From contig NZ_SBJL01000004.1 of the NCBI RefSeq assembly GCF_004634425.1, forward strand, positions 389,429 to 453,428: a stretch of DNA of 64,000 bases, given 5' to 3'. Shown here in pieces: positions 30,363 to 41,135 of this stretch; within the stretch, counting starts at the first letter, position 1, and every line of letters begins with the position of its first letter. The stretch is from Vitreimonas flagellata (GTDB taxonomy: Bacteria > Pseudomonadota > Alphaproteobacteria > Caulobacterales > Aquidulcibacteraceae). The notes beneath the pieces are model-generated. The model had not been told where the DNA came from. It was given only the letters and a program-made list of their open reading frames with translations, and did no database searches. The translations under genes and the position numbers were made by a program.

Positions 30363-31238
30363 ATGGCCCGTTTCTGGATGTTGATTGCTGCGGTCTTGGC
30401 GCTTTCGGCGCCGGCTTATGCACAGCAGCAGCGCGATCCGTTCAACGGGCAGTTTGGCGTCATCGAGCTCGCGGCGCCGCCGGCGGAAGCCGCGCGTCTG
30501 GCCAAGCTCATGGGCGATTCCCTGAATGGCCTCGCGGCGCAGCGTCCGGGCCAGCTCGATGTGTACATGATCAGCGCCGGCTTCTGGAGCGACGCGGTCT
30601 TCGAGCGCGAGACGACGCAAGCGGCGGAAATTCTTGGCGCGCATTTCGGTGAAGCGGCGCAGGGGCGCTCCATCGTCTTGAGCGCGGGCGGACAGGGCGC
30701 GCGCAATTATCCGGCCGCGACCCCGGACAATTTCTCCGCCGCGATCGGCCAGATCGGCGCGACCATTGATCCGAATGAAGATCTGGTCGTGTTGTTCCTG
30801 ACGTCACATGGTTCGCCCGATGGTTCGATCGCGCTCCGCGAACACAATCGCCTTGGCGCCTCGATGCGACCGACGCATTTGCGTGACATGCTCAACGCCG
30901 CCGGCATCCGGAATCGCGTGATAATCGTCTCGGCCTGCTTTAGCGGCGCGTTTATTGCGCCTTTGATGGACGACAACACGATCATCCTTACTGCCGCGCA
31001 GCACGATCGGTCGTCATTTGGTTGTCAGCCGCAGCGTGATTGGACCTTCTTCGGCGACGCCTTGTTCAGCCACAATCTGCGCAATGGCGAGTCGCTTCTC
31101 GAAGCGTTTGATCGCGCCAAGGTGCTGATTGAGCGTTGGGAGCGCGAGCAGCGTCTGACGCCAGCCTCGAACCCGCAACGCCATGTCGGTGCGCGCGCTG
31201 CTGATATGCTGCGCCGCGCGGAACGCGCCGCGCGCTAA
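30363..31238 (+). CDS. C13-family (legumain-type) cysteine peptidase
   Basis: 291 residues with a signal peptide ending SAPAYA (cleavage about residue 20). The catalytic dyad of clan CD is plain: His149 in LFLTSHGSPDG and Cys192 in IIVSACFSGAF, each following a hydrophobic beta-strand. Bacterial C13 proteins are secreted or periplasmic and usually shorter than eukaryotic legumains, as here. The physiological substrate is unknown. SD GAAGGGAG precedes ATG 30363. The stop codon overlaps the convergent Lrp-type regulator by 4 bp. Confidence 0.9.
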   Translation: MARFWMLIAAVLALSAPAYAQQQRDPFNGQFGVIELAAPPAEAARLAKLMGDSLNGLAAQRPGQLDVYMISAGFWSDAVFERETTQAAEILGAHFGEAAQGRSIVLSAGGQGARNYPAATPDNFSAAIGQIGATIDPNEDLVVLFLTSHGSPDGSIALREHNRLGASMRPTHLRDMLNAAGIRNRVIIVSACFSGAFIAPLMDDNTIILTAAQHDRSSFGCQPQRDWTFFGDALFSHNLRNGESLLEAFDRAKVLIERWEREQRLTPASNPQRHVGARAADMLRRAERAAR

Positions 31239-32983: not shown

Positions 32984-34219
32984 ATGAATCACATCGAGGC
33001 GCAGGCTGGAGCAGGGCGGCTGCGGCAGATCGGGATACTTGTTGGGGCCACCTTGGGCTGGGGCGGCGGGGTCGCGATGTTTGTGCTGTTGGGCGGGCTC
33101 TTCATCGCGCCGCTTGAGGCGGCCTTTCTATGGCGACGCGGCGACATCGCGCTTTCGAGTTTTATTCTCTTGGGCATGGGATTGATGGCGCCGCTCATTG
33201 GCGTCGCGGCCGATCGGATCGGCGCTCATATTTTTGTGGGCGTAGGCGCAATCGGATTTGCCTGCGCTTATGTCGCCCTGGCTACCATGAACGGCGAGCT
33301 TTGGCGCTATCTCGCCATCCTTGGCTTTGTCGCCTTGATTGCAGCGCCAGCGACATCGCCGCTCATCTATTCCAGGGTCGTGGTGGCCCATTTCACCAAG
33401 ACGCGAGGGCTTGCGCTGTCGATTTGCCTCAGCGGCTCGACGGCTTTGGCGGCTTTGATGCTGCCGCTTACCCAATACGTGATTGCGAGCTTTGGCTGGC
33501 GCGCGGGCTATTACATGCTTGCAGGACTTGCGTTGATGATCGGCGCCATCAGCTTTGTGCTCTTGCGCAAGGCCGCGCCGCCGCGCCAAACCGAAGCCTC
33601 CTCTGGCGCGTCGAAATGGGGCGCTCTAGCGCGCGCCTTGGGCGACGCCCGCTTTTGGTTGCTTGCGCTCTGCTTTGCATCGGGCGGGTGTGCGTTGGTG
33701 GGGGTAAGCGCGCACACGCAACCTTTCCTCACCGAGAGCGGCTTTGATCCCATGCGCGCCGCCTGGCTCGGCAGCCTGCTGGGCGTGGTGATGATCGTTG
33801 CGCGCGTGACGGTGGGAGCCTTGCTCGATGTCATGGAGCCGGGCTGGCTTGGGCTTACGGCGTTTCTGGCGGCTGTGTTGGGATGCCTTGGGTTGGCTTG
33901 GCCCCAAGCGCCAGCATTGGCGATCATCGTTGCGCTTGCGCTGATCGCTTGCGCGCAGAGTGCTGAAAGCGACTTCCTTGGGTTTTTCACCGCACGCTAT
34001 TTTGGCGTGGCGCATTTCGGCGTGATCTCAGGCGCGCTCAGTCTGATCTTTGCTGTGTTCGTGGCATTGGGCGGCGTTATTGCTGGGCGCATGCACGACA
34101 CCTTTGGCGATTATCGCGCCTTCTTCTATCTCGCCGCGATCCTTTGTTCGCTGGCGGGCGTCGCGTTGTTTGCGAGCGCGCGACTTAAGGCGCCCGAGGT
34201 GCGCAACAGCGGCCAATAG
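32984..34219 (+). CDS. MFS transporter
   Basis: 411 residues with about 12 hydrophobic helices. The cytoplasmic loop after helix 2 reads GLMAPLIGVAADRIGAHIFV, the expected MFS motif A position (G-x-x-x-D-R-x-G). The overall pattern resembles the monocarboxylate/oxalate-formate porter branch (start of helix 1 GATLGWGGGVAMFVLLGGLF). Encoded in the same direction as the amine-oxidase-like enzyme and the borosin-type pair downstream (94 bp to the next start), it is a candidate exporter of the peptide product; this is inferred from position only. Confidence 0.9.
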   Translation: MNHIEAQAGAGRLRQIGILVGATLGWGGGVAMFVLLGGLFIAPLEAAFLWRRGDIALSSFILLGMGLMAPLIGVAADRIGAHIFVGVGAIGFACAYVALATMNGELWRYLAILGFVALIAAPATSPLIYSRVVVAHFTKTRGLALSICLSGSTALAALMLPLTQYVIASFGWRAGYYMLAGLALMIGAISFVLLRKAAPPRQTEASSGASKWGALARALGDARFWLLALCFASGGCALVGVSAHTQPFLTESGFDPMRAAWLGSLLGVVMIVARVTVGALLDVMEPGWLGLTAFLAAVLGCLGLAWPQAPALAIIVALALIACAQSAESDFLGFFTARYFGVAHFGVISGALSLIFAVFVALGGVIAGRMHDTFGDYRAFFYLAAILCSLAGVALFASARLKAPEVRNSGQ

Positions 34220-34313: not shown

Positions 34314-35798
34314 ATGCGCGTCGATCGCAATCAATCCATCGCCATCATCGGCGCCGGCGTAAGCGGGCTCTATCTCGCCTATCGTCTGCAAGAGGCGGGC
34401 TTTCAGAATGTGCGTGTGTTTGAGGCGCGCGCACGCGTCGGCGGGCGCATGCATGATCGTCAAATCGGTGTGCTCGGAGCCGAGGTCGCGTTGGGCGCGC
34501 TAAGTTTCAGCGACGCCCACCCACATGTCAGTGGGCTTTGCGCGCATTTGGGCTTGAAGCGCCATGAGCTCGCGTTCGTGCGCGCGGGCTTTGCCTTGCG
34601 CGGCGCACGTTCCGACGGCGCCGATCAGGCAGTTGTGCGTTCACGCTACGGTCTTGGGGACGAAGGCGCCGTCGGCGACGCCTATGCTCTTCTACTCACA
34701 TTGGTCGGCGTGGTCGCGCCCGACTTTGCGCGATACTGGCGCGATGACGATGCGCTCCTCCGGTACCTGCAAAATTGTGTCGTCGATGGCCGTGCATTGT
34801 CGCAATGGGGCTTTTGGCCATTGGTTGCGGCCAAGCTTCCTCCAGAGGCTTGCGCCTTTGTGCGCGATTGCCTTGGGCTTCGCTCTTGTGTCGCCGCCAC
34901 CCAAGCGGCGGGCGCGATTTTTACCTTGCTGTGGGAGATGCGACCCGGACAAACGCATTTTGCCTTGACGGGCGGGTTTTCAGCGCTTGGCGCACGTCTG
35001 TACGCTGAGACCGCGGCCGGCGATGTCTATCATTTTTCGAGCACGCTTGAGCGCGTCACGACGCACGGGACGGGCTTTCAACTGACGATCCGTCGTGATT
35101 GCGGGGCGCGCGAAGTGTTCGACGCCGAAATCGTCATCCTCACATGCCCGCCAGCTGCGCTGAAGGCGCTTGAGTTTGACGATCAAGTATTCGCCTCTCA
35201 TGTGGCGTCGGCGTGCGCAGATGTCGCCGCCATCGAGGCAAGCAAGCTTGTTTTACTGTTTGAGCAGTCATCGCGTTCGGACGCAGGCGCGGCGCGGGTC
35301 ATCCACACATTCTCTGCGGACGCGCCGCTCGCGCTGGTCTTGAGTGAAGCCAACCCATCGGGCGCACAATTATTCACGATTTTTGCCGACGGGGAGAACG
35401 CGCACTTTTGGGCGAGCTTTGCGGGCGCCAGCGACGCCCCGGCCAGTCCAGAGGCGATCGTTGCAGCGCAGCGAGAGCTCGAGTGGGCTCTCGGCCAGAG
35501 GCTCGGCGCGCCTGTCGCCTCCTGGTGGATTGAGTGGTCGCGTAGAGGTGAAGGTGCTGCCTGGCACGCCTGGTCGGTCGGCGCCGACGCGGCGACGACG
35601 CGGGTGCGCATCATGCGTCCTGATCCCGATAAAGCGCTCTTCATTTGCGGCGAGGCGTTTGCGGCCCCGCAAGGCTGGGTGGAAGGCGCATTGAGTTCCG
35701 CCGAAATGGTTCTCGAACGGCATTTCGGCATGACGCGGCCGCATTGGCTGCGTGAACACACCACGTTCGAGATTTCACGAGAAAGGAATATCTCATGA
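34314..35798 (+). CDS. Flavin amine-oxidase-like oxidoreductase
   Basis: 494 residues from ATG 34314, preceded by CGGAGACACC. The FAD dinucleotide-binding motif is IAIIGAGVSGLYLAYRLQEA, followed by VFEARARVGGRM (the GGR motif of the monoamine oxidase family), and the C-terminal FAD contact FICGEAFAAPQGWVEGALSSAEMVL typical of the family. Family members oxidise amines, amino acids or carotenoid-like substrates. The stop overlaps the start of the 56-residue ORF (ATGA), and the borosin-type methyltransferase follows, so it is a likely tailoring enzyme of that peptide; no family member is known to me in that role. Confidence 0.9.
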   Translation: MRVDRNQSIAIIGAGVSGLYLAYRLQEAGFQNVRVFEARARVGGRMHDRQIGVLGAEVALGALSFSDAHPHVSGLCAHLGLKRHELAFVRAGFALRGARSDGADQAVVRSRYGLGDEGAVGDAYALLLTLVGVVAPDFARYWRDDDALLRYLQNCVVDGRALSQWGFWPLVAAKLPPEACAFVRDCLGLRSCVAATQAAGAIFTLLWEMRPGQTHFALTGGFSALGARLYAETAAGDVYHFSSTLERVTTHGTGFQLTIRRDCGAREVFDAEIVILTCPPAALKALEFDDQVFASHVASACADVAAIEASKLVLLFEQSSRSDAGAARVIHTFSADAPLALVLSEANPSGAQLFTIFADGENAHFWASFAGASDAPASPEAIVAAQRELEWALGQRLGAPVASWWIEWSRRGEGAAWHAWSVGADAATTRVRIMRPDPDKALFICGEAFAAPQGWVEGALSSAEMVLERHFGMTRPHWLREHTTFEISRERNIS

Positions 35799-35965
35799 CA
35801 AGCCCCCACATCATGGCGATGGACCCGTTTGCGCGCGCCGCCCATTTGCGCCGAGTCGGTGCGGCGCGGCGCGTACGCTCTGCTGATGCGCTGCCAGCGC
35901 CTAAGATTGTGCACGCTGGCGCGCCTCAGCCGAAGATCGTGCACGCGCTGATCACGCACGTCTAA
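35795..35965 (+). CDS. Putative borosin-type RiPP precursor peptide
   Basis: 56 residues, starting at an ATG that overlaps the stop of the oxidoreductase (ATGA) with its own AAAGGA ribosome-binding site about 8 bases upstream. Residues 1-32 form a basic, alanine/arginine-rich leader (MDPFARAAHLRRVGAARRVR). The C-terminal part repeats PKIVHA twice (residues 36-41 and 47-52) and ends ALITHV, a hydrophobic, beta-branched stretch like the backbone-N-methylated cores of borosins. It lies 63 bp before a stand-alone borosin-type methyltransferase. Known split borosin precursors carry a longer binding domain, so this would be unusually small. Function inferred from context. Confidence 0.6.
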   Translation: MTSPHIMAMDPFARAAHLRRVGAARRVRSADALPAPKIVHAGAPQPKIVHALITHV

Positions 35966-35973
35966 AGCCCCTC

Positions 35974-36000
35974 GGCGTCGGCCCTCACTGGGTCGGCGCC
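35974..36000 (+). terminator. Hairpin between precursor and methyltransferase (attenuator candidate)
   Basis: An 11-bp stem (35974-35984 with 35990-36000; nine Watson-Crick pairs and two G-T) encloses the loop TCACT, nine bases after the precursor stop. Only a short pyrimidine run (CCCCCTTTCTTC) follows, so partial termination or 3'-end protection is more plausible than full stop. This arrangement commonly gives more precursor than enzyme in RiPP operons. Confidence 0.65.
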
Positions 36001-36028
36001 GCCCCCTTTCTTCAATGAGGCAAACGGA

Positions 36029-36820
36029 ATGACGCAAGAAGGTTGTCTGATTATCGCGGGGCTTGGCCTGCATCCGGGCCAATGCACGTTGGAAGCGCGC
36101 GCCGCGCTTATCGCTGCCGACATTGTATTCGTGCAAGCGGGCGAGGCTGACATGCTGGCTTGGGTGCGCGAGCTCAATGGCCGAACCCTCTCGCTTCAAG
36201 ATTTCTATGCCGGTCGCGCCACACGGCTTGACGCTTATGCGGCCATGGCTGAGGCCATGCTGGCGCCGGTGCGGCGGGGCTTACGGGTTTGTGCGGCGTT
36301 TTACGGCCATCCCGGGGTGTTTGTGTCGCCCTCTCATATTGCGTGTGGACGCGCTGCTGAAGAGGGGCTCCTCGTGGTGATGTTGCCAGGCGTGTCGGCC
36401 GAAGATTGTCTCTTCGCTGATCTTGGCGTCGATCCAGGCCAGAGCGGGCTGCAATCTTACGAGGCGCGCGACTTCTTCGTGCACGCGCGCCAGATCGACG
36501 CCACCGCGCCGCTCGTGCTTTGGCAACCCATTGTGGTCGATGAGGCGGCGCTGTCGGGTTTTAACTCTCGCCTTGGCGCCATCCGCGCCTTGGCGGCGGC
36601 CCTCATGGAGATCTATCCGCCAAGCCACGAAATTATACTTTATGAGGCGGCTGTGCGTATGGACGAGTCCGCGCGTATCGAGAAGCTTACGCTTGCGAAT
36701 TTGGAGCGCGCCCAGTTTGCCCAAGAAACGACGCTCTATGTGCCGGCGCTGCGTGGTCCTGCATTGTCAACTTCCCGCGCCCGTTTGATGAAGCGCCTGC
36801 TCGCTGAGGACAATTGCTGA
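36029..36820 (+). CDS. Split borosin-type peptide alpha-N-methyltransferase
   Basis: 263 residues, a complete tetrapyrrole-methylase-fold (class III SAM) domain. It has the borosin signature in order: GLGLHPGQCTLEARAALIAA, ADIVFV, FYAGRATRLDAYAAM, FYGHPGVFVSPS, MLPGVSAEDCLFADLGVDPG, LQSYEARDFF and ILYEAAV. The residues equivalent to OphMA Tyr66, Arg72, Tyr76 and Tyr98 are Tyr60, Arg66, Tyr70 and Tyr92, all present with the same spacing. Unlike OphMA, the protein ends after the catalytic domain with no fused core, as in SonM-type split systems. It should methylate backbone amides of a separate precursor using S-adenosylmethionine; the 56-residue ORF upstream is the candidate. GAGG lies before ATG 36029. 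Confidence 0.9.
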   Translation: MTQEGCLIIAGLGLHPGQCTLEARAALIAADIVFVQAGEADMLAWVRELNGRTLSLQDFYAGRATRLDAYAAMAEAMLAPVRRGLRVCAAFYGHPGVFVSPSHIACGRAAEEGLLVVMLPGVSAEDCLFADLGVDPGQSGLQSYEARDFFVHARQIDATAPLVLWQPIVVDEAALSGFNSRLGAIRALAAALMEIYPPSHEIILYEAAVRMDESARIEKLTLANLERAQFAQETTLYVPALRGPALSTSRARLMKRLLAEDNC

Positions 36821-36821
36821 C

Positions 36822-37619
36822 CTACGATCCGAACACTGCGCCAAGTTCGCGGGCGGCGAGAATGGCGCTCGCCAGATGCAATTCGGCTGCGTCCAATTCC
36901 ATCATGCCACGCCACAGCGCGCGCATATCGTCTTCGCGATCGACAATGATGATGAGGCCATGGGTCCCAGCGGCAAGCACGGCGACGGGGTAGGGCTGGG
37001 CGCCGTCGCGCAGTCGCGTCAGCGCAGGCCGGGCGCCATCGCCTGAATTGAATGCACGATCCATACAATCGGCGATGCTTTGCGCGTCGCGGTCTTCAGC
37101 AAAGGTAAGACGCTCGCGATCGGACCACAGACTCAAGCGTCGGTCCAACAAGGTTCGTGCGCGCGCATTGGCCGATTTGATCTCCAGGTTACGGTCCACG
37201 AGCAGCGCCGCGAAGGGCAGCGCGTCCAACATCATGAACGGGTAGGTGAGCGCTGCGATCCGGTCGCGCTCCTGTTGCAGCGCGAGGGCGGCGAAGGGCG
37301 CGAGCGCGTCAAAAGCCGCAGAGCTTACGCGCGTTGACCAGGCGATGAGGAAGCTGCGCTCAAGCCCGCCAAGCGGGTGGAGACGGAGCTTGGGGTGCTG
37401 TTGCAGGGGGCCTGACATGGCGTCATGGAAAGCTTGGGCCAGCGCGTCAGCGCTTGGCCCCGCACAGGCGATGCGCCATTGATCTTGCCCCTCAGTGTAG
37501 GCGATTGCCAAAGCCTCGGCCTGGATTGCGCAGCGGCAGGATTCCAGCGCCTCCAATACGTGTCGCACCGGCTTATCCTGGCGCAAGCTGAAGGGCGCAT
37601 GGGTGACGAGGGCATTCAT
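36822..37619 (-). CDS. PAS-domain regulator-like protein lacking its LuxR end
   Basis: 265 residues. The first 125 residues resemble a sensory helical domain, then a PAS-like fold: MMLDALPFAALLVDRNLEIK, SANARARTLLDRR, SIADCMDRAF and GAQPYPVAVLAAGTHGLIII. In LuxR-type PAS regulators the following segment is ..LTxAEaRlA.AlaaG.s.. leading into the helix-turn-helix; here it reads ELDAAELHLASAILAARELG and stops five residues later. The DNA-binding domain is therefore missing. The stop lies 1 base from the borosin methyltransferase stop (convergent). It may be a decayed regulator or act through protein contact. Confidence 0.7.
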   Translation of the reverse strand: MNALVTHAPFSLRQDKPVRHVLEALESCRCAIQAEALAIAYTEGQDQWRIACAGPSADALAQAFHDAMSGPLQQHPKLRLHPLGGLERSFLIAWSTRVSSAAFDALAPFAALALQQERDRIAALTYPFMMLDALPFAALLVDRNLEIKSANARARTLLDRRLSLWSDRERLTFAEDRDAQSIADCMDRAFNSGDGARPALTRLRDGAQPYPVAVLAAGTHGLIIIVDREDDMRALWRGMMELDAAELHLASAILAARELGAVFGS

Positions 37620-37745: not shown

Positions 37746-38480
37746 GTGAGCCGGCGTGTGCGTTTCCAAGCGCAAGAGAGCGCGCGCCGGCTGGGTGCAA
37801 TCGGCGTGTTTTCAGCGCTCGATGCCGACGCGATTGCGGTGATCGCCAGCGAGATTGTATGGAGCGCCTTCGAGCCTGGGGCGCAAATTCTTTCTCATCT
37901 CGACCAATCGCGAGAATTCTACATCTTGAGTGAAGGCGAGCTTGAGGCGCGGCTTGATAGCCCCATTGGGCGCGGCGTGCGTGTGCGGCGTTTGCAGGCT
38001 GGCGCGCATTTTGGCGAGTTGGCGCCGCTTACGGGCGCTCGGCGCAGCGTGACATTGGTGGCGACCGGCGATGTTGTTGTCGGCGCGCTTGGCGAAACGA
38101 TTTTCCAGCGCCTGCTGCAGACCCAAGCAGGGTTCGCCGCCGCCCTCGCTGTTGATCTGGCGCGCAGCGTCGTTCATCTCACCGAACGGGTCTATGAGTT
38201 GGCCGCGCTTGAAATGCGCTTTCGCCTTTATGGTCAATTGTTGCGTTTGGCGGTGCGCACCGGCCTGAATGCAGCAACTATTGCCCCGGCGCCCACCCAC
38301 GCGGAGTTCGCCGAAATGATCGGGGCCCGACGCGAGGCTGTAACGCTTGAATTAAACTATCTTGAACGCGAGGGGGTGCTCCTGATCGAGCGCGCCGGCA
38401 TTCTCATCGTCGACATGGCGCGTCTGACCGACATGTTCGCCAAGCGCGCGGGATCGTCGCCGCAGACCGGTTTTGAGTAA
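37746..38480 (+). CDS. Crp/Fnr-family transcriptional regulator
   Basis: 244 residues, starting at GTG 37746 with GAAGGGG upstream. The cyclic-nucleotide-binding-type beta-roll runs from about residue 20 to 125 (FYILSEGELEARL, LQAGAHFGELAPLTGARRSVTLVA), where GELAPLTGARRS matches the phosphate-binding cassette of cNMP-binding domains including the Arg. A dimerisation helix follows, then the winged helix HAEFAEMIGARREAVTLELNYLEREG as recognition helix. The four-Cys cluster of FNR is absent, so oxygen sensing via iron-sulfur is excluded; ligand likely cyclic nucleotide. It is 3 bp upstream of a cyclase-containing gene. Confidence 0.92.
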   Translation: MSRRVRFQAQESARRLGAIGVFSALDADAIAVIASEIVWSAFEPGAQILSHLDQSREFYILSEGELEARLDSPIGRGVRVRRLQAGAHFGELAPLTGARRSVTLVATGDVVVGALGETIFQRLLQTQAGFAAALAVDLARSVVHLTERVYELAALEMRFRLYGQLLRLAVRTGLNAATIAPAPTHAEFAEMIGARREAVTLELNYLEREGVLLIERAGILIVDMARLTDMFAKRAGSSPQTGFE

Positions 38481-38483
38481 CCT

Positions 38484-41135
38484 GTGCAACGCGGATACCT
38501 CTTCTCCGACATCGACGGCAGCACGCAAAAATGGGAGCGCGCTGGATTTGCGATGCAGGCCGCCATGCGTCGCCACGACGCCATTTTTGCGGAATTGATC
38601 GCCGCCCATGGCGGGTTCATTCATGACCATGTCGGCGACAGCGTTTTCGCCATCTTCGAGACGGGAGATCCCCTAGCGTGCGCGCTCGATCTGCAACTGG
38701 CTTTCGCACGTGAAGCGTGGCCATTGACTGAAGGCTTGCGCGTGCGTGTGGGCGTGCATGCGAGCGCCTCGGCGACGTCAGAGGGGGCGGGGGCGATTGC
38801 CGAGCGCATCGCGGCCAATCGTGTGGCGCGTATCGCCGATTGCGCCGCGGGTGGTCAGATCGTGGCGAGTGTCGAAGCGGTGAGCGCCTATGGCGCGCCG
38901 GCGCACACGCGCTTCGTCGACCTCGGTGCGGTCTTGTTGAAGGGCGTGGAAGCGCCCGTGCAAATCTTTGGCCTTGATCACGAGGCTTTGCGGGGCGCTC
39001 CTTTCACGCGCGTGCGCCGCCAAGCGGCGGCGCACGCGAATTTGCCAAAACCCATGGCGCCATTGCTCGGGCGCGCGCAAGAATTGGCGCGATTAGCAGA
39101 ACTTATCGCAGCGCCCGAGGGGGGGCGCATTATCAATGTGGTGGGACCAGCGGGCGTCGGCAAAACCCGTTTGGTGCAAGAAGCGGCCTATCAGTTCAGC
39201 CAGACCCAACCCGTCTTATATCTACCGCTTGCATCGCTGCACGACGGGGAAGATCTGATCGGGGCGCTCGCGCGTGCGCTGAATCTTCCAGCGTTAGGCG
39301 CCGCCTTGACCGCGGAGGCGATTAGCGAGGCCCTGCGGGTTCGGCCCCGACTTCTGGTGCTCGACAACGTTGAGCGCGCAAGCCCTGACGCCTTGACTGC
39401 GTTCGGCGAGTTCCTTGCGACGCACCGTCACGTCCATGCAGTTTGCGCCAGCCGCTGGCCCTTGGAAATTGCCCATACGCGCTTGCGTGTGAAAGGACTC
39501 GCCGCCCCTGGGCCGGGAAGGGAGGCGCTGGCCGAGAACGCCGCCTATGGCTTGTTCGCGCGCGAAGCCGCACACGCCGGCGCAAGCCTTGAAGCTGACG
39601 ACCGAACGGCGTCTTTGTTCGCCCGATTATGCGACGCGCTTGGCGGTCTGCCGTTGGCGCTGCAACTGAGCGCAGCGTGGTTGCGTTATTTGCCATTGGA
39701 TGCGGTGGTGGAGCGCTTGGCGCAGCATCGGGGCGAATTTGGCTTTATCTTCGCAGACACTTGGGCGGCTCTGTCGCCTGATGTGCGCGACAAAATCGGC
39801 CGTCTCTCAATCTTTCGCACCGCTTTCTCCGCCGCGGCGGCCGCCGAAGTGGCGGGCGTCGAACTTGGCGAATTGATCAAGTTTGAGGAAAGCGGATTGG
39901 TGGAGAGGGCGGCGGAGCGCTGTTTCATCTTGCATCCGCTCTTGGCTGAAATGGCCGAGGCGAAGACGGCGAATTTCGATACCGCCCAAGCCCATGCGGA
40001 ATATTTTCTCTCAGCGCCCATGCTGGCGCCGCGCCCGCGTGGGGAAGGACATGTGCCGATTGCAGAGGTGGAAGCAGCGTGGATGTTGGCGCGTCGCTTT
40101 TGGCCGGAGCCGAAATTGCAAGCGGCCGGCGAGCGACTCTTCTATTGGTGCGCCTTTGCAGGCCTCTTCAAAGAAGGCGCTTCATTGTTCGCGGCGCGAG
40201 ACGCCGAGGGCGAATTGGGTTTCTACATATCCGCTTTGCGCGCCAATTGTTTGGTGCACGCCCATGAGGGAGAGGCCGCTCAAAAGCTGGCGGCCGCGGC
40301 GAGCGCCAGTTCTGACGCCTTGACGCGCGCACACGGATTGCATGCGCTGGGCAATCTAGCGCATGCGCGCGGCGATTTCGATGAAGCGGAAGAGTTTTAC
40401 GCTGCGGCGCTGCCAATAAGGCGCGATCTTCATGATCGCATCGGCGCGCATTATACAATCATGTCTATGGCCGCGCTCGCTTTGGCGCGTGGGCATGCGG
40501 CCGCCGTCGGCCAAATCTTGGTGGACGCGCTTAATGATGCGCATGCCCACCCGGTCGCTATGATCCACACCCACTTCTTTGCCGGCGAGGCCCTCTTGGC
40601 CCAAGGTCGCCATAAGCAAGCGGAGATCAACTTTCAGCGCGCGCTTGAACTCGACGCCTTGATTGAACATCCCGCATTCCGCACGCGTCTTTTGCTGCGT
40701 ATGGGCGCCGTCGCCAATTTGGCCAGAGATCGGGCGCGTGCGCATGCCTTTTTCGATGAGGCGCAGCTTTTGGCTGGGACCCTGGGGGATCGGCGCGGCG
40801 GTTGCTATGCAGCTATTGAGCTTGCCCTTGCCGCCCACGTCGCCGGCGACAGTGCGCGTGCGAAAGCAGAATTGTTGACGGCGGTGCGGGTGGCCTTGGA
40901 ATTGCGCTCAAAGCCTTTGGTGGCGCGCGCATTGTTGGCGCTTTTGCAGGTTGAGATGGAAATTGGCGACGATCAGGCGGCGGAGAGATTGCGCGAGGTT
41001 CTGGCTGGCGCGGACTTGGGCGAATTGAGCGCAAGGTTCGCGCAATTGACCAAGACGCCGCCACGCGCGGGCGACGATGGTCGGGGCGGTCAGGTGCTCT
41101 TGGAGGAAGGGGCCCGACGGGTGTTGCAGCTTTGA
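38484..41135 (+). CDS. Class III cyclase-like / AAA ATPase / TPR regulator
   Basis: 883 residues from GTG 38484. Domain order: class III nucleotidyl cyclase-like (1-165) with metal Asp9 in LFSDIDGST and Asp52 in VGDSVFAIF, and the NR..R motif ANRVARI; then a STAND-type ATPase with Walker A GPAGVGKT (221-228) and Walker B RLLVLDN (289-295), the winged-helix region LSIFRTAFS, and from about 560 a string of TPR-like repeats (LHALGNLAHARGDFDEAEEF). In usual adenylate cyclases the adenine-contacting Lys of VKTxGD is present; here the position is Asp48 (IHDHVGD), so activity or base choice is uncertain. Translationally coupled to the Crp-like gene, suggesting a signal-producer/receiver pair. Confidence 0.88.
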   Translation: MQRGYLFSDIDGSTQKWERAGFAMQAAMRRHDAIFAELIAAHGGFIHDHVGDSVFAIFETGDPLACALDLQLAFAREAWPLTEGLRVRVGVHASASATSEGAGAIAERIAANRVARIADCAAGGQIVASVEAVSAYGAPAHTRFVDLGAVLLKGVEAPVQIFGLDHEALRGAPFTRVRRQAAAHANLPKPMAPLLGRAQELARLAELIAAPEGGRIINVVGPAGVGKTRLVQEAAYQFSQTQPVLYLPLASLHDGEDLIGALARALNLPALGAALTAEAISEALRVRPRLLVLDNVERASPDALTAFGEFLATHRHVHAVCASRWPLEIAHTRLRVKGLAAPGPGREALAENAAYGLFAREAAHAGASLEADDRTASLFARLCDALGGLPLALQLSAAWLRYLPLDAVVERLAQHRGEFGFIFADTWAALSPDVRDKIGRLSIFRTAFSAAAAAEVAGVELGELIKFEESGLVERAAERCFILHPLLAEMAEAKTANFDTAQAHAEYFLSAPMLAPRPRGEGHVPIAEVEAAWMLARRFWPEPKLQAAGERLFYWCAFAGLFKEGASLFAARDAEGELGFYISALRANCLVHAHEGEAAQKLAAAASASSDALTRAHGLHALGNLAHARGDFDEAEEFYAAALPIRRDLHDRIGAHYTIMSMAALALARGHAAAVGQILVDALNDAHAHPVAMIHTHFFAGEALLAQGRHKQAEINFQRALELDALIEHPAFRTRLLLRMGAVANLARDRARAHAFFDEAQLLAGTLGDRRGGCYAAIELALAAHVAGDSARAKAELLTAVRVALELRSKPLVARALLALLQVEMEIGDDQAAERLREVLAGADLGELSARFAQLTKTPPRAGDDGRGGQVLLEEGARRVLQL

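What the first reader, a model, noticed from the sequence alone, without database searches (positions are those of the whole stretch)
34314..36820. Compact split-borosin RiPP cluster with a very short precursor
The 263-residue methyltransferase has the borosin hallmark segments (FYGHPGVF, PGVSAEDCLFADLG, QSYEARDFF) and all four residues matching OphMA Tyr66/Arg72/Tyr76/Tyr98. It has no fused core, and a 56-residue ORF of peptide character lies directly upstream, translationally linked to a flavin amine-oxidase-like gene. Known split borosins pair a stand-alone methyltransferase with a larger precursor that contains a separate binding domain; here the leader would be only about 30 residues. Sequence motifs are seen; the assignment to the family is established knowledge; the precursor role is inference.
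Basis: partly seen in the sequence, partly recalled or inferred. Interest (0 to 1): 0.93.

Follow-up and report, generated by a model that had tools for sequence, protein, structure and literature searches.

The report
Borosin precursor missing its docking domain
A bacterial gene cluster places an enzyme closely related to known peptide-backbone methyltransferases beside a conserved 56-residue peptide, likely its substrate, in which the docking domain carried by its relatives' peptides could not be found, so it would let one test how such an enzyme can find its substrate without that domain.

Summary
Window 34314-36820 carries a flavin amine oxidase (AO) gene, a 56-codon ORF overlapping its stop (ATGA), and a 263-residue methyltransferase (MT). 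By sequence and predicted fold the MT is a borosin alpha-N-methyltransferase (SonM E 2e-49; Foldseek TM up to 0.90) with all four active-site residues. The ORF is conserved: four database clusters and a split-frame copy in a congener share it, ending in a doubled motif, PKIVHA..PKIVHA. Sister clusters put a longer precursor after the AO gene; it has a ~55-residue borosin binding domain (BBD), and four of them end PPKVVNVP or similar. Two BBD models find it in 9 of 9 other MT-bearing congeners but not in the two genomes with the short peptide. MTs of this clade (6 rows, about four lineages) lack the proline of the loop that the BBD wraps in SonM. AO, MT and a cyclase-AAA-TPR regulator occur in the same 11 of 30 genomes of the genus. 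Best reading: a BBD-less split borosin with a ~33-residue leader and tandem core, derived from BBD-type ancestors. BBD-less clusters are already named (Class 4), so this is a variant, not a new kind. Methylation, the AO reaction and the product are untested.

The parts
32984..34219 (+). MFS transporter gene, possible exporter
   Evidence: Pfam MFS_1 2.3e-27; conserved at the same place in congener L013, 73% identity in its largest piece. Of the 92 loci held only L013 matched (E 1e-6); many have short flanks. Membership uncertain.
34314..35798 (+). Flavin amine oxidase (L-amino-acid-oxidase type), predicted tailoring enzyme
   Evidence: Pfam Amino_oxidase 5.8e-29; best PDB matches are amine oxidoreductases and FAD L-Lys/L-amino-acid oxidases, 3.4e-25 to 3e-19; same 11 of 30 congeneric genomes as the MT.
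35795..35965 (+). 56-residue predicted borosin precursor, including stop
   Evidence: Conserved family P0121-P0124; third-position bias against L013; ATGA overlap with the AO gene.
35795..35893 (+). Short leader, residues 1-33, no borosin binding domain detected
   Evidence: hhalign against BBD precursors 0.5% probability; no better than shuffles; DPFARA invariant in 5 of 5 rows.
35900..35917 (+). First PKIVHA of the predicted core
   Evidence: Invariant in 5 of 5 rows; four sister precursors hold PPKVV, PPKII or APKII near the end.
35930..35947 (+). Second PKIVHA of the predicted core
   Evidence: Invariant in 5 of 5 rows; its codons differ from the first copy only at synonymous third positions.
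35973..36001 (+). RNA hairpin (12-bp stem) between precursor and MT genes, possible attenuator
   Evidence: z -2.89 in the window; a 14-bp stem, z -6.10, between the same genes in L013. Function inferred.
36029..36820 (+). Borosin alpha-N-methyltransferase, 263 aa
   Evidence: SonM 2e-49, OphMA 2e-40; model pLDDT 92.8; Foldseek SonM TM 0.84-0.90, OphA 0.85-0.90 among the 50 rows shown.
36822..37619 (-). PAS-domain protein
   Evidence: PAS_4 9.4e-4, below the Pfam cut-off; syntenic in L013, 40% identity.
37746..38480 (+). CRP/FNR-type regulator
   Evidence: cNMP_binding 3e-14, HTH_Crp_2 7.1e-12; 67% identity in L013; relatives in loci L093, L094 and L098 of the six fetched.
38484..41135 (+). 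Cyclase-like, AAA and TPR regulator (883 aa)
   Evidence: Pfam AAA_16 and TPR hits; Guanylate_cyc 3.8e-4, below its cut-off; same 11 of 30 congeneric genomes as the MT.

Best explanation
This is a split-borosin gene cluster in which a SonM-like methyltransferase would N-methylate the backbone of a 56-residue peptide, its likely precursor, that shows no detectable borosin binding domain and carries the motif PKIVHA twice. Inferred working: a ~33-residue basic leader (conserved DPFARA..L.R.GA) or the core itself brings the peptide to the MT dimer. The hydrophobic residues of the two PK-I-V-H-A repeats and the tail (I38, V39, I48, V49, L52, I53) would thread through the active site past Y60/R66/Y70/Y92 and SAM, and be methylated from N to C as in SonA. 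The amine oxidase would then oxidise the peptide, most likely an alpha-amine freed by proteolysis (weak inference); an MFS pump might export it; a cyclase-AAA-TPR protein and a CRP-type factor would control expression. Shown: gene order, MT family and residues, conservation of the peptide, no detected BBD in two whole genomes, presence of BBD in the sister clusters, lack of the BBD-loop proline, and the shared genome distribution of MT, AO and regulator. Inferred: precursor role, methylation, sites, AO reaction, export, regulation.
For: MT: SonM 2e-49, OphMA 2e-40; AlphaFold pLDDT 92.8 and Foldseek SonM TM up to 0.90; four catalytic residues. Peptide: four database clusters P0121-P0124, PKIVHA twice in 5 of 5 rows; peptide P0122 and MT P0002 each list one contig of 27438 bases, which suggests linkage; third-position bias 9/6/26. 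Homologous slot: L014, L022, L003/L093 and L010/L094 have BBD precursors ending in PPKVVNVP.., PPKIITVP.., PPKIIVVP.. and APKIIQIP.. between the AO and MT genes. BBD loss: model A3 gives best E 0.198 in G000 and 0.876 in G023, but 8.8e-19 or better in 9 of 9 other MT-bearing congeners; six of those nine gave rows to A3. A model without any row of the genus (A8) finds no match at E 1 in G000 and G023 and hits the cluster's BBD ORF in 9 of 9 others, 8 at 6.7e-5 or better and G007 at 0.018. MT change: the SonM P212 position, in the loop 208-216 that the BBD wraps (PMC8429565), is M, M, T, L, A, A in 6 of 6 clade MTs, against P in 54 of 63 BBD-partnered MTs; SonM G172 is D in 6 of 6 against G in 63 of 63. 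MT, AO and regulator occur in the same 11 of 30 genomes.
Against: No methylation data. The modelled precursor-linker-MT chain left the peptide undocked (pLDDT 31-41 over its first 60 residues), though such a model was unlikely to succeed. No protease was recognised among the cluster's genes. The iterated BBD model misses some divergent BBD-like ORFs (L024, L030, L057, L069; seen by eye), so absence is not proof. The six clade MTs are about four lineages (window/P0001 99%, P0004/L013 93% identical), and the short peptide is seen beside the MT only in the window and L013; for P0002 it is inferred, for P0003 and P0004 unknown. The L013 copy is split by two apparent one-base indels; its MFS gene is split too, and P0123 is an intact near-twin. 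P0005's MT, sister to the clade, keeps the loop proline but has Asp at the G172 position; its precursor is unknown. That Asp lies in the top clamp, not in the BBD loop.
Confidence: 0.74

Rival explanations
1. The peptide is the substrate, but an undetected, divergent BBD encoded elsewhere acts in trans, as a detached docking protein.
For: The BBD model misses divergent BBD-like ORFs, for example in Kangiella loci L057 and L069 (by eye); a published class links BBD to the MT rather than to the core (Class 2).
Against: Best whole-genome match E 0.198 with A3 and none at E 1 with the genus-free A8, which still finds the BBD in 9 of 9 other MT-bearing congeners. AO and MT are about as long as in sister clusters (window 494 and 263 aa; L014 ORFs 485 and 262 aa). 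The BBD-loop proline is missing in the MT clade.
Confidence: 0.12
2. The 56-residue peptide is not methylated (for example a regulatory or attenuator peptide), and the MT acts on another peptide or small molecule.
For: No activity data; no docking in the fused model; an RNA hairpin follows the ORF.
Against: Amino acids are conserved, not only RNA; PK[IV][IV] shared with four BBD-type precursors in the same slot.
Confidence: 0.1
3. The amine oxidase acts on the core lysines (PK) and makes allysine that cross-links the two repeats, rather than on an N-terminal amine.
For: The Lys is invariant in both repeats in 5 of 5 rows and is present in four sister cores; AO matches an FAD L-Lys oxidase (7eii) at 2.4e-24.
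Against: AO also accompanies cores without such a Lys (L017, L018, L023: FIVL, FVIL, LIIF ends), so Lys cannot be the general target.
Confidence: 0.25
4. The methyltransferase is an ordinary cobalt/tetrapyrrole methylase next to a chance ORF.
For: Pfam TP_methylase 2.9e-17, a superfamily label that the MT relatives listed also carry (PF00590).
Against: SonM 2e-49 and OphMA 2e-40; NCBIfam YabN 48.5 bits against a cut-off of 525, cobI 13.3 against 163; ORF conserved.
Confidence: 0.01

Closest known systems
Type IV split borosin, SonM/SonA of Shewanella oneidensis (PMC8429565)
   Same: Separate 263-residue MT and separate precursor; same fold, same four active-site residues; hydrophobic stretch near the C-terminus.
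   Different: SonA has a five-helix BBD (residues 1-53) and one core; here a ~33-residue leader with no detected BBD and a doubled PKIVHA motif. The loop that the BBD wraps lacks its proline, and an amine oxidase gene is adjacent.
Class 4 borosins (MT and core separate, no BBD identified; PMC11395268, Figure 1 legend)
   Same: Separate MT and short putative core peptide, no BBD in the cluster.
   Different: The types behind Class 4 were not readable here (Imani 2022 and Lee 2024 not held, Cho 2022 not looked up), so sameness of precursor cannot be judged. Here relatives in the same genus carry the BBD.
OphMA / dbOphMA fused fungal borosins
   Same: MT domain homologous (2e-40 and 3.4e-44).
   Different: Core and clasp are fused to the MT in those proteins; separate here.
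AO + BBD-precursor + MT clusters of the same genus, Wenzhouxiangella and relatives (L003, L010, L014-L019, L021-L023, L026, L039)
   Same: AO gene, precursor in the slot after AO, MT, and in the genus the cyclase-AAA-TPR regulator (not always adjacent).
   Different: Precursor has the BBD; in L016, L019 and L021 the regulator gene lies between precursor and MT.

Membership tests
Split borosin (general) | MT homologous to SonM/OphMA, encoded apart from the core | tested here: met
   no fused core.
Split borosin (general) | Active-site Tyr/Arg/Tyr/Tyr (SonM Y58, R67, Y71, Y93) | tested here: met
   Window Y60, R66, Y70, Y92 in the alignment.
Split borosin (general) | Separately encoded precursor beside the MT | tested here: met
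   Conserved ORF 35795-35965 in the slot used by BBD precursors in sister clusters. Its role as substrate is inferred.
Split borosin (general) | Backbone N-methylation of the core | not testable with these tools
   Needs mass spectrometry.
Type IV split borosin (SonM/SonA) | Precursor leader is a ~53-residue helical BBD | tested here: not met
   hhalign 0.5%; shuffles; whole genome best E 0.198 with A3, none at E 1 with A8.
Class 4 borosin | MT and core are separate and no BBD lies in the cluster | tested here: met
   No BBD ORF (30-700 aa) in the 64-kb window at E below 1 or in the genome. The definition is negative and rests on one figure legend.
Class 4 borosin | Precursor similar to those of the published members | not tested
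   Two primary papers are not held; Cho 2022 was not looked up.
Cobalt/tetrapyrrole methylase | Reaches a curated family cut-off | tested here: not met
   NCBIfam best 48.5 bits against 525; only the superfamily model TP_methylase passes.

The most novel reading that the evidence does not exclude
Within one genus, a borosin methyltransferase has changed how it recognises its substrate: the folded BBD was lost and a ~33-residue linear leader, or the doubled PKIVHA core itself, took over docking, with matching change in the MT loop that the BBD grips; the oxidase module was kept. The pair would be a small, leader-simple backbone N-methylation system that makes an oxidised, N-methylated peptide not yet known.
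Probability: 0.45. Interest if true: 0.68.

Novelty: new variant of a known kind. Interest (0 to 1): 0.52.

Why it matters
In SonM the BBD gives most of the substrate binding (PMC8429565). A natural clade that works without it, with BBD-bearing sisters in the same genus, would give matched pairs to learn what else positions the backbone amide, and a compact 56-residue substrate would ease engineering of N-methylated peptides. The genus-wide co-inheritance of oxidase, MT and regulator also points to an oxidative step in borosin maturation. I saw no report of one, on thin ground: (borosin + amine oxidase) listed one paper, on graspetides, seen as listing and abstract start only; one search listed seven, of which I searched passages in one (borosin only in its reference list); and the library lacks Imani 2022 and Lee 2024.

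Tried and rejected
Leader as a relic of the BBD's second half: a by-eye alignment looked suggestive (ARAA.. to PK), but hhalign gave 0.5%, and against the BBD model the window leader's score was reached by 59 of 500 shuffles, P0122's by 352, P0123's by 353; P0124 got no score. Rejected.

Lysobacter hits to the leader (L056, L033; E 0.11, 0.21) lie 3 kb or more from the MT and overlap, on the other strand, an ORF found in both loci. Rejected.

Fused precursor-linker-MT model: peptide not docked, pLDDT 31-41 in its first 60 residues. Uninformative.

Legumain-like peptidase C13 at 30363-31238 as leader protease: tblastn finds it in no other of the 98 loci held apart from one weak partial match, L087, E 0.007; it lies 3 kb upstream of the AO gene. 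Not supported.

Promoter and terminator scan: 1 promoter-like site (0.8 expected) and 9 terminator-like sites (6.1 expected); no use. Literature: Imani 2022, Lee 2024 and a third borosin paper (DOIs recalled) are not held.

Limits: the MT tree (214 rows, FastTree, midpoint root) holds no tetrapyrrole methylase, so it does not test that rival. The search for related loci kept the best 80 of 130 relatives; BBD ORFs (E below 1e-3) were found in 63 of 80. Of the 17 without, one is L013; L025, L030, L058, L067, L083 and L085 have under 3 kb upstream of the MT; L024, L030, L057 and L069 have BBD-like ORFs by eye; L085 has a weak hit (0.024); the others I did not resolve. Rows of A3 come from loci of six of the nine BBD-bearing congeners; the genus-free control is. 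The co-occurrence cut-offs (AO 1e-12, regulator 1e-30) were mine.
Full report
Observation. AO 34314-35798 and the 56-codon ORF 35795-35965 overlap by ATGA; MT follows at 36029-36820. The MT is a borosin alpha-N-methyltransferase: phmmer against PDB sequences gives SonM 2e-49, dbOphM 3.4e-44, OphMA 2e-40, while curated tetrapyrrole families stay far below cut-off. An AlphaFold model (56-row alignment; mean pLDDT 92.8, pTM 0.83) matches SonM at TM 0.84-0.90 and OphA at 0.85-0.90 in the 50 Foldseek rows shown. SonM Y58, R67, Y71 and Y93, studied by mutation in PMC8429565 (abstract, sections 4, 6-9 and 16 and search passages read), align with window Y60, R66, Y70 and Y92.

The peptide is conserved. 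A search of about 5.8 billion proteins with the peptide found 2 relatives among 2 candidates, and with a three-row alignment 4 among 8: P0121 (96%), P0122 (75%), P0123 and P0124 (63 and 65% in alignment A4). All 5 rows of A4 share MTS, DPFARA, PKIVHA and a second PKIVHA. Peptide P0122 and MT P0002 each list one contig of 27438 bases; that they share it is inferred. In the congener locus L013 (Hyphomonadaceae bacterium JAD_PAG50586_4; by coordinates the same place as G023) the peptide lies in the same slot, interrupted by two apparent one-base indels; the neighbouring MFS gene is split there too, and P0123 is an intact near-twin. Over 42 comparable codons the differences fall 9, 6 and 26 on codon positions 1, 2 and 3. 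A hairpin between precursor and MT genes is present in both (z -2.89 and -6.10).

Sister clusters carry the BBD. Of 80 relatives kept from the genome collection (of 130 found), 63 have an ORF matching a BBD-precursor model built from ten sister precursors and iterated. In L014, L022, L003/L093 and L010/L094 the precursor lies between the AO and MT genes and ends PPKVVNVPGAFGAAA, PPKIITVPAAFAAV, PPKIIVVPAAAYARAA or APKIIQIPALPA. In L016, L019 and L021 the order is AO, BBD precursor, cyclase-AAA-TPR regulator, MT. So the window peptide sits where a BBD precursor sits in its relatives and shares a PK[IV][IV] core with four of them, but no BBD is detected in it.

Loss of the BBD is supported in four ways. 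(1) Model A3 (15 rows) finds nothing significant in the window's genome (best E 0.198) or in G023 (0.876), yet 8.8e-19 or better in 9 of 9 other MT-bearing congeners. Six of those nine gave rows to A3, so I repeated the search with A8, nine rows from outside the genus: no match at E 1 in G000 or G023, and the cluster's BBD ORF in 9 of 9 others, 8 at 6.7e-5 or better and G007 weakly at 0.018. (2) Profile comparison of the peptide family with the BBD precursors gives 0.5% probability. (3) Leader scores are not above shuffles. (4) The loop that the SonA BBD wraps in SonM (208-216; PMC8429565 section 8) lacks its proline in 6 of 6 clade MTs (window, P0001, P0002, P0003, P0004, L013), against P in 54 of 63 BBD-partnered MTs and 179 of 206 other rows. 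The six are about four lineages (window/P0001 99%, P0004/L013 93% identical), and the peptide is seen beside the MT only in the window and L013. A top-clamp glycine (SonM G172) is Asp in 6 of 6 and Gly in 63 of 63. P0005, the sister MT, has the Asp but keeps the Pro; its precursor is unknown. The correlation is suggestive; the sample is one clade.

The module. MT occurs in 11 of 30 genomes of the genus; AO (E 1e-12 or better) and the cyclase-AAA-TPR regulator (1e-30 or better) occur in exactly the same 11. If genomes were independent the chance of one such coincidence would be 1.8e-8, but they are related, so this is not a probability. The regulator is not always adjacent: in G008 its only match is on another contig than MT and AO. 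Among the 80 genome loci, 12 carry the AO at 1e-15, including Wenzhouxiangella. The AO resembles FAD L-amino-acid and L-Lys oxidases; its substrate here is inferred to be the peptide.

Mechanism. Shown: gene content, homology, conservation, no detected BBD. Inferred: the peptide is methylated on hydrophobic core residues N to C, as SonA is; the short leader or the core docks it; AO oxidises it; MFS exports it; the cyclase-like and CRP proteins regulate. A fused-chain model did not dock the peptide, so the binding mode is open.

Known or new. Split borosins without a BBD are already named: the Figure 1 legend of PMC11395268 (abstract, introduction, part of the results, discussion and figure legends read) defines Class 4 as MT and core separate with no BBD identified. 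The primary papers Imani 2022 and Lee 2024 are not held, and Cho 2022 was not looked up. A 2024 review, PMC11285071 (passages read), assigns types IV-X to bacteria. So this is a new variant of a known kind: a BBD-less split borosin with tandem core and oxidase, whose BBD-bearing sisters live in the same genus.

Noticed in passing
L096 9641-11443 (-), genome G004: One continuous 600-residue ORF holds the amine oxidase and, at its C-terminus, a BBD and a core: an oxidase fused to the borosin precursor, or a lost stop in one draft genome. If real, it ties the oxidase to the precursor directly.
   Followed up: partly
L075 5072-6001 and L077 5024-6001: In MAGs titled Myxococcales and Deltaproteobacteria the BBD is followed by many VVYAAG- or MVYGA-type repeats just before the MT: highly repetitive, possibly multi-core borosin precursors.
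   Followed up: no
L040, L059 and L074: Two borosin MT matches in the same locus.
   Followed up: no
window 30363-31238 (+): Peptidase C13 (legumain-like) gene, Pfam 3.6e-20; no match in L013.
   Followed up: partly
window 38484-41135 (+): Cyclase-like, AAA and TPR regulator co-inherited with borosin clusters in the genus. The cyclase domain scores below the Pfam cut-off and may be degenerate.
   Followed up: partly
P0005 (62% identical MT, 12 contigs listed): Sister MT to the short-precursor clade: keeps the BBD-loop proline but has the top-clamp Asp; its precursor would show which change came first.
   Followed up: no
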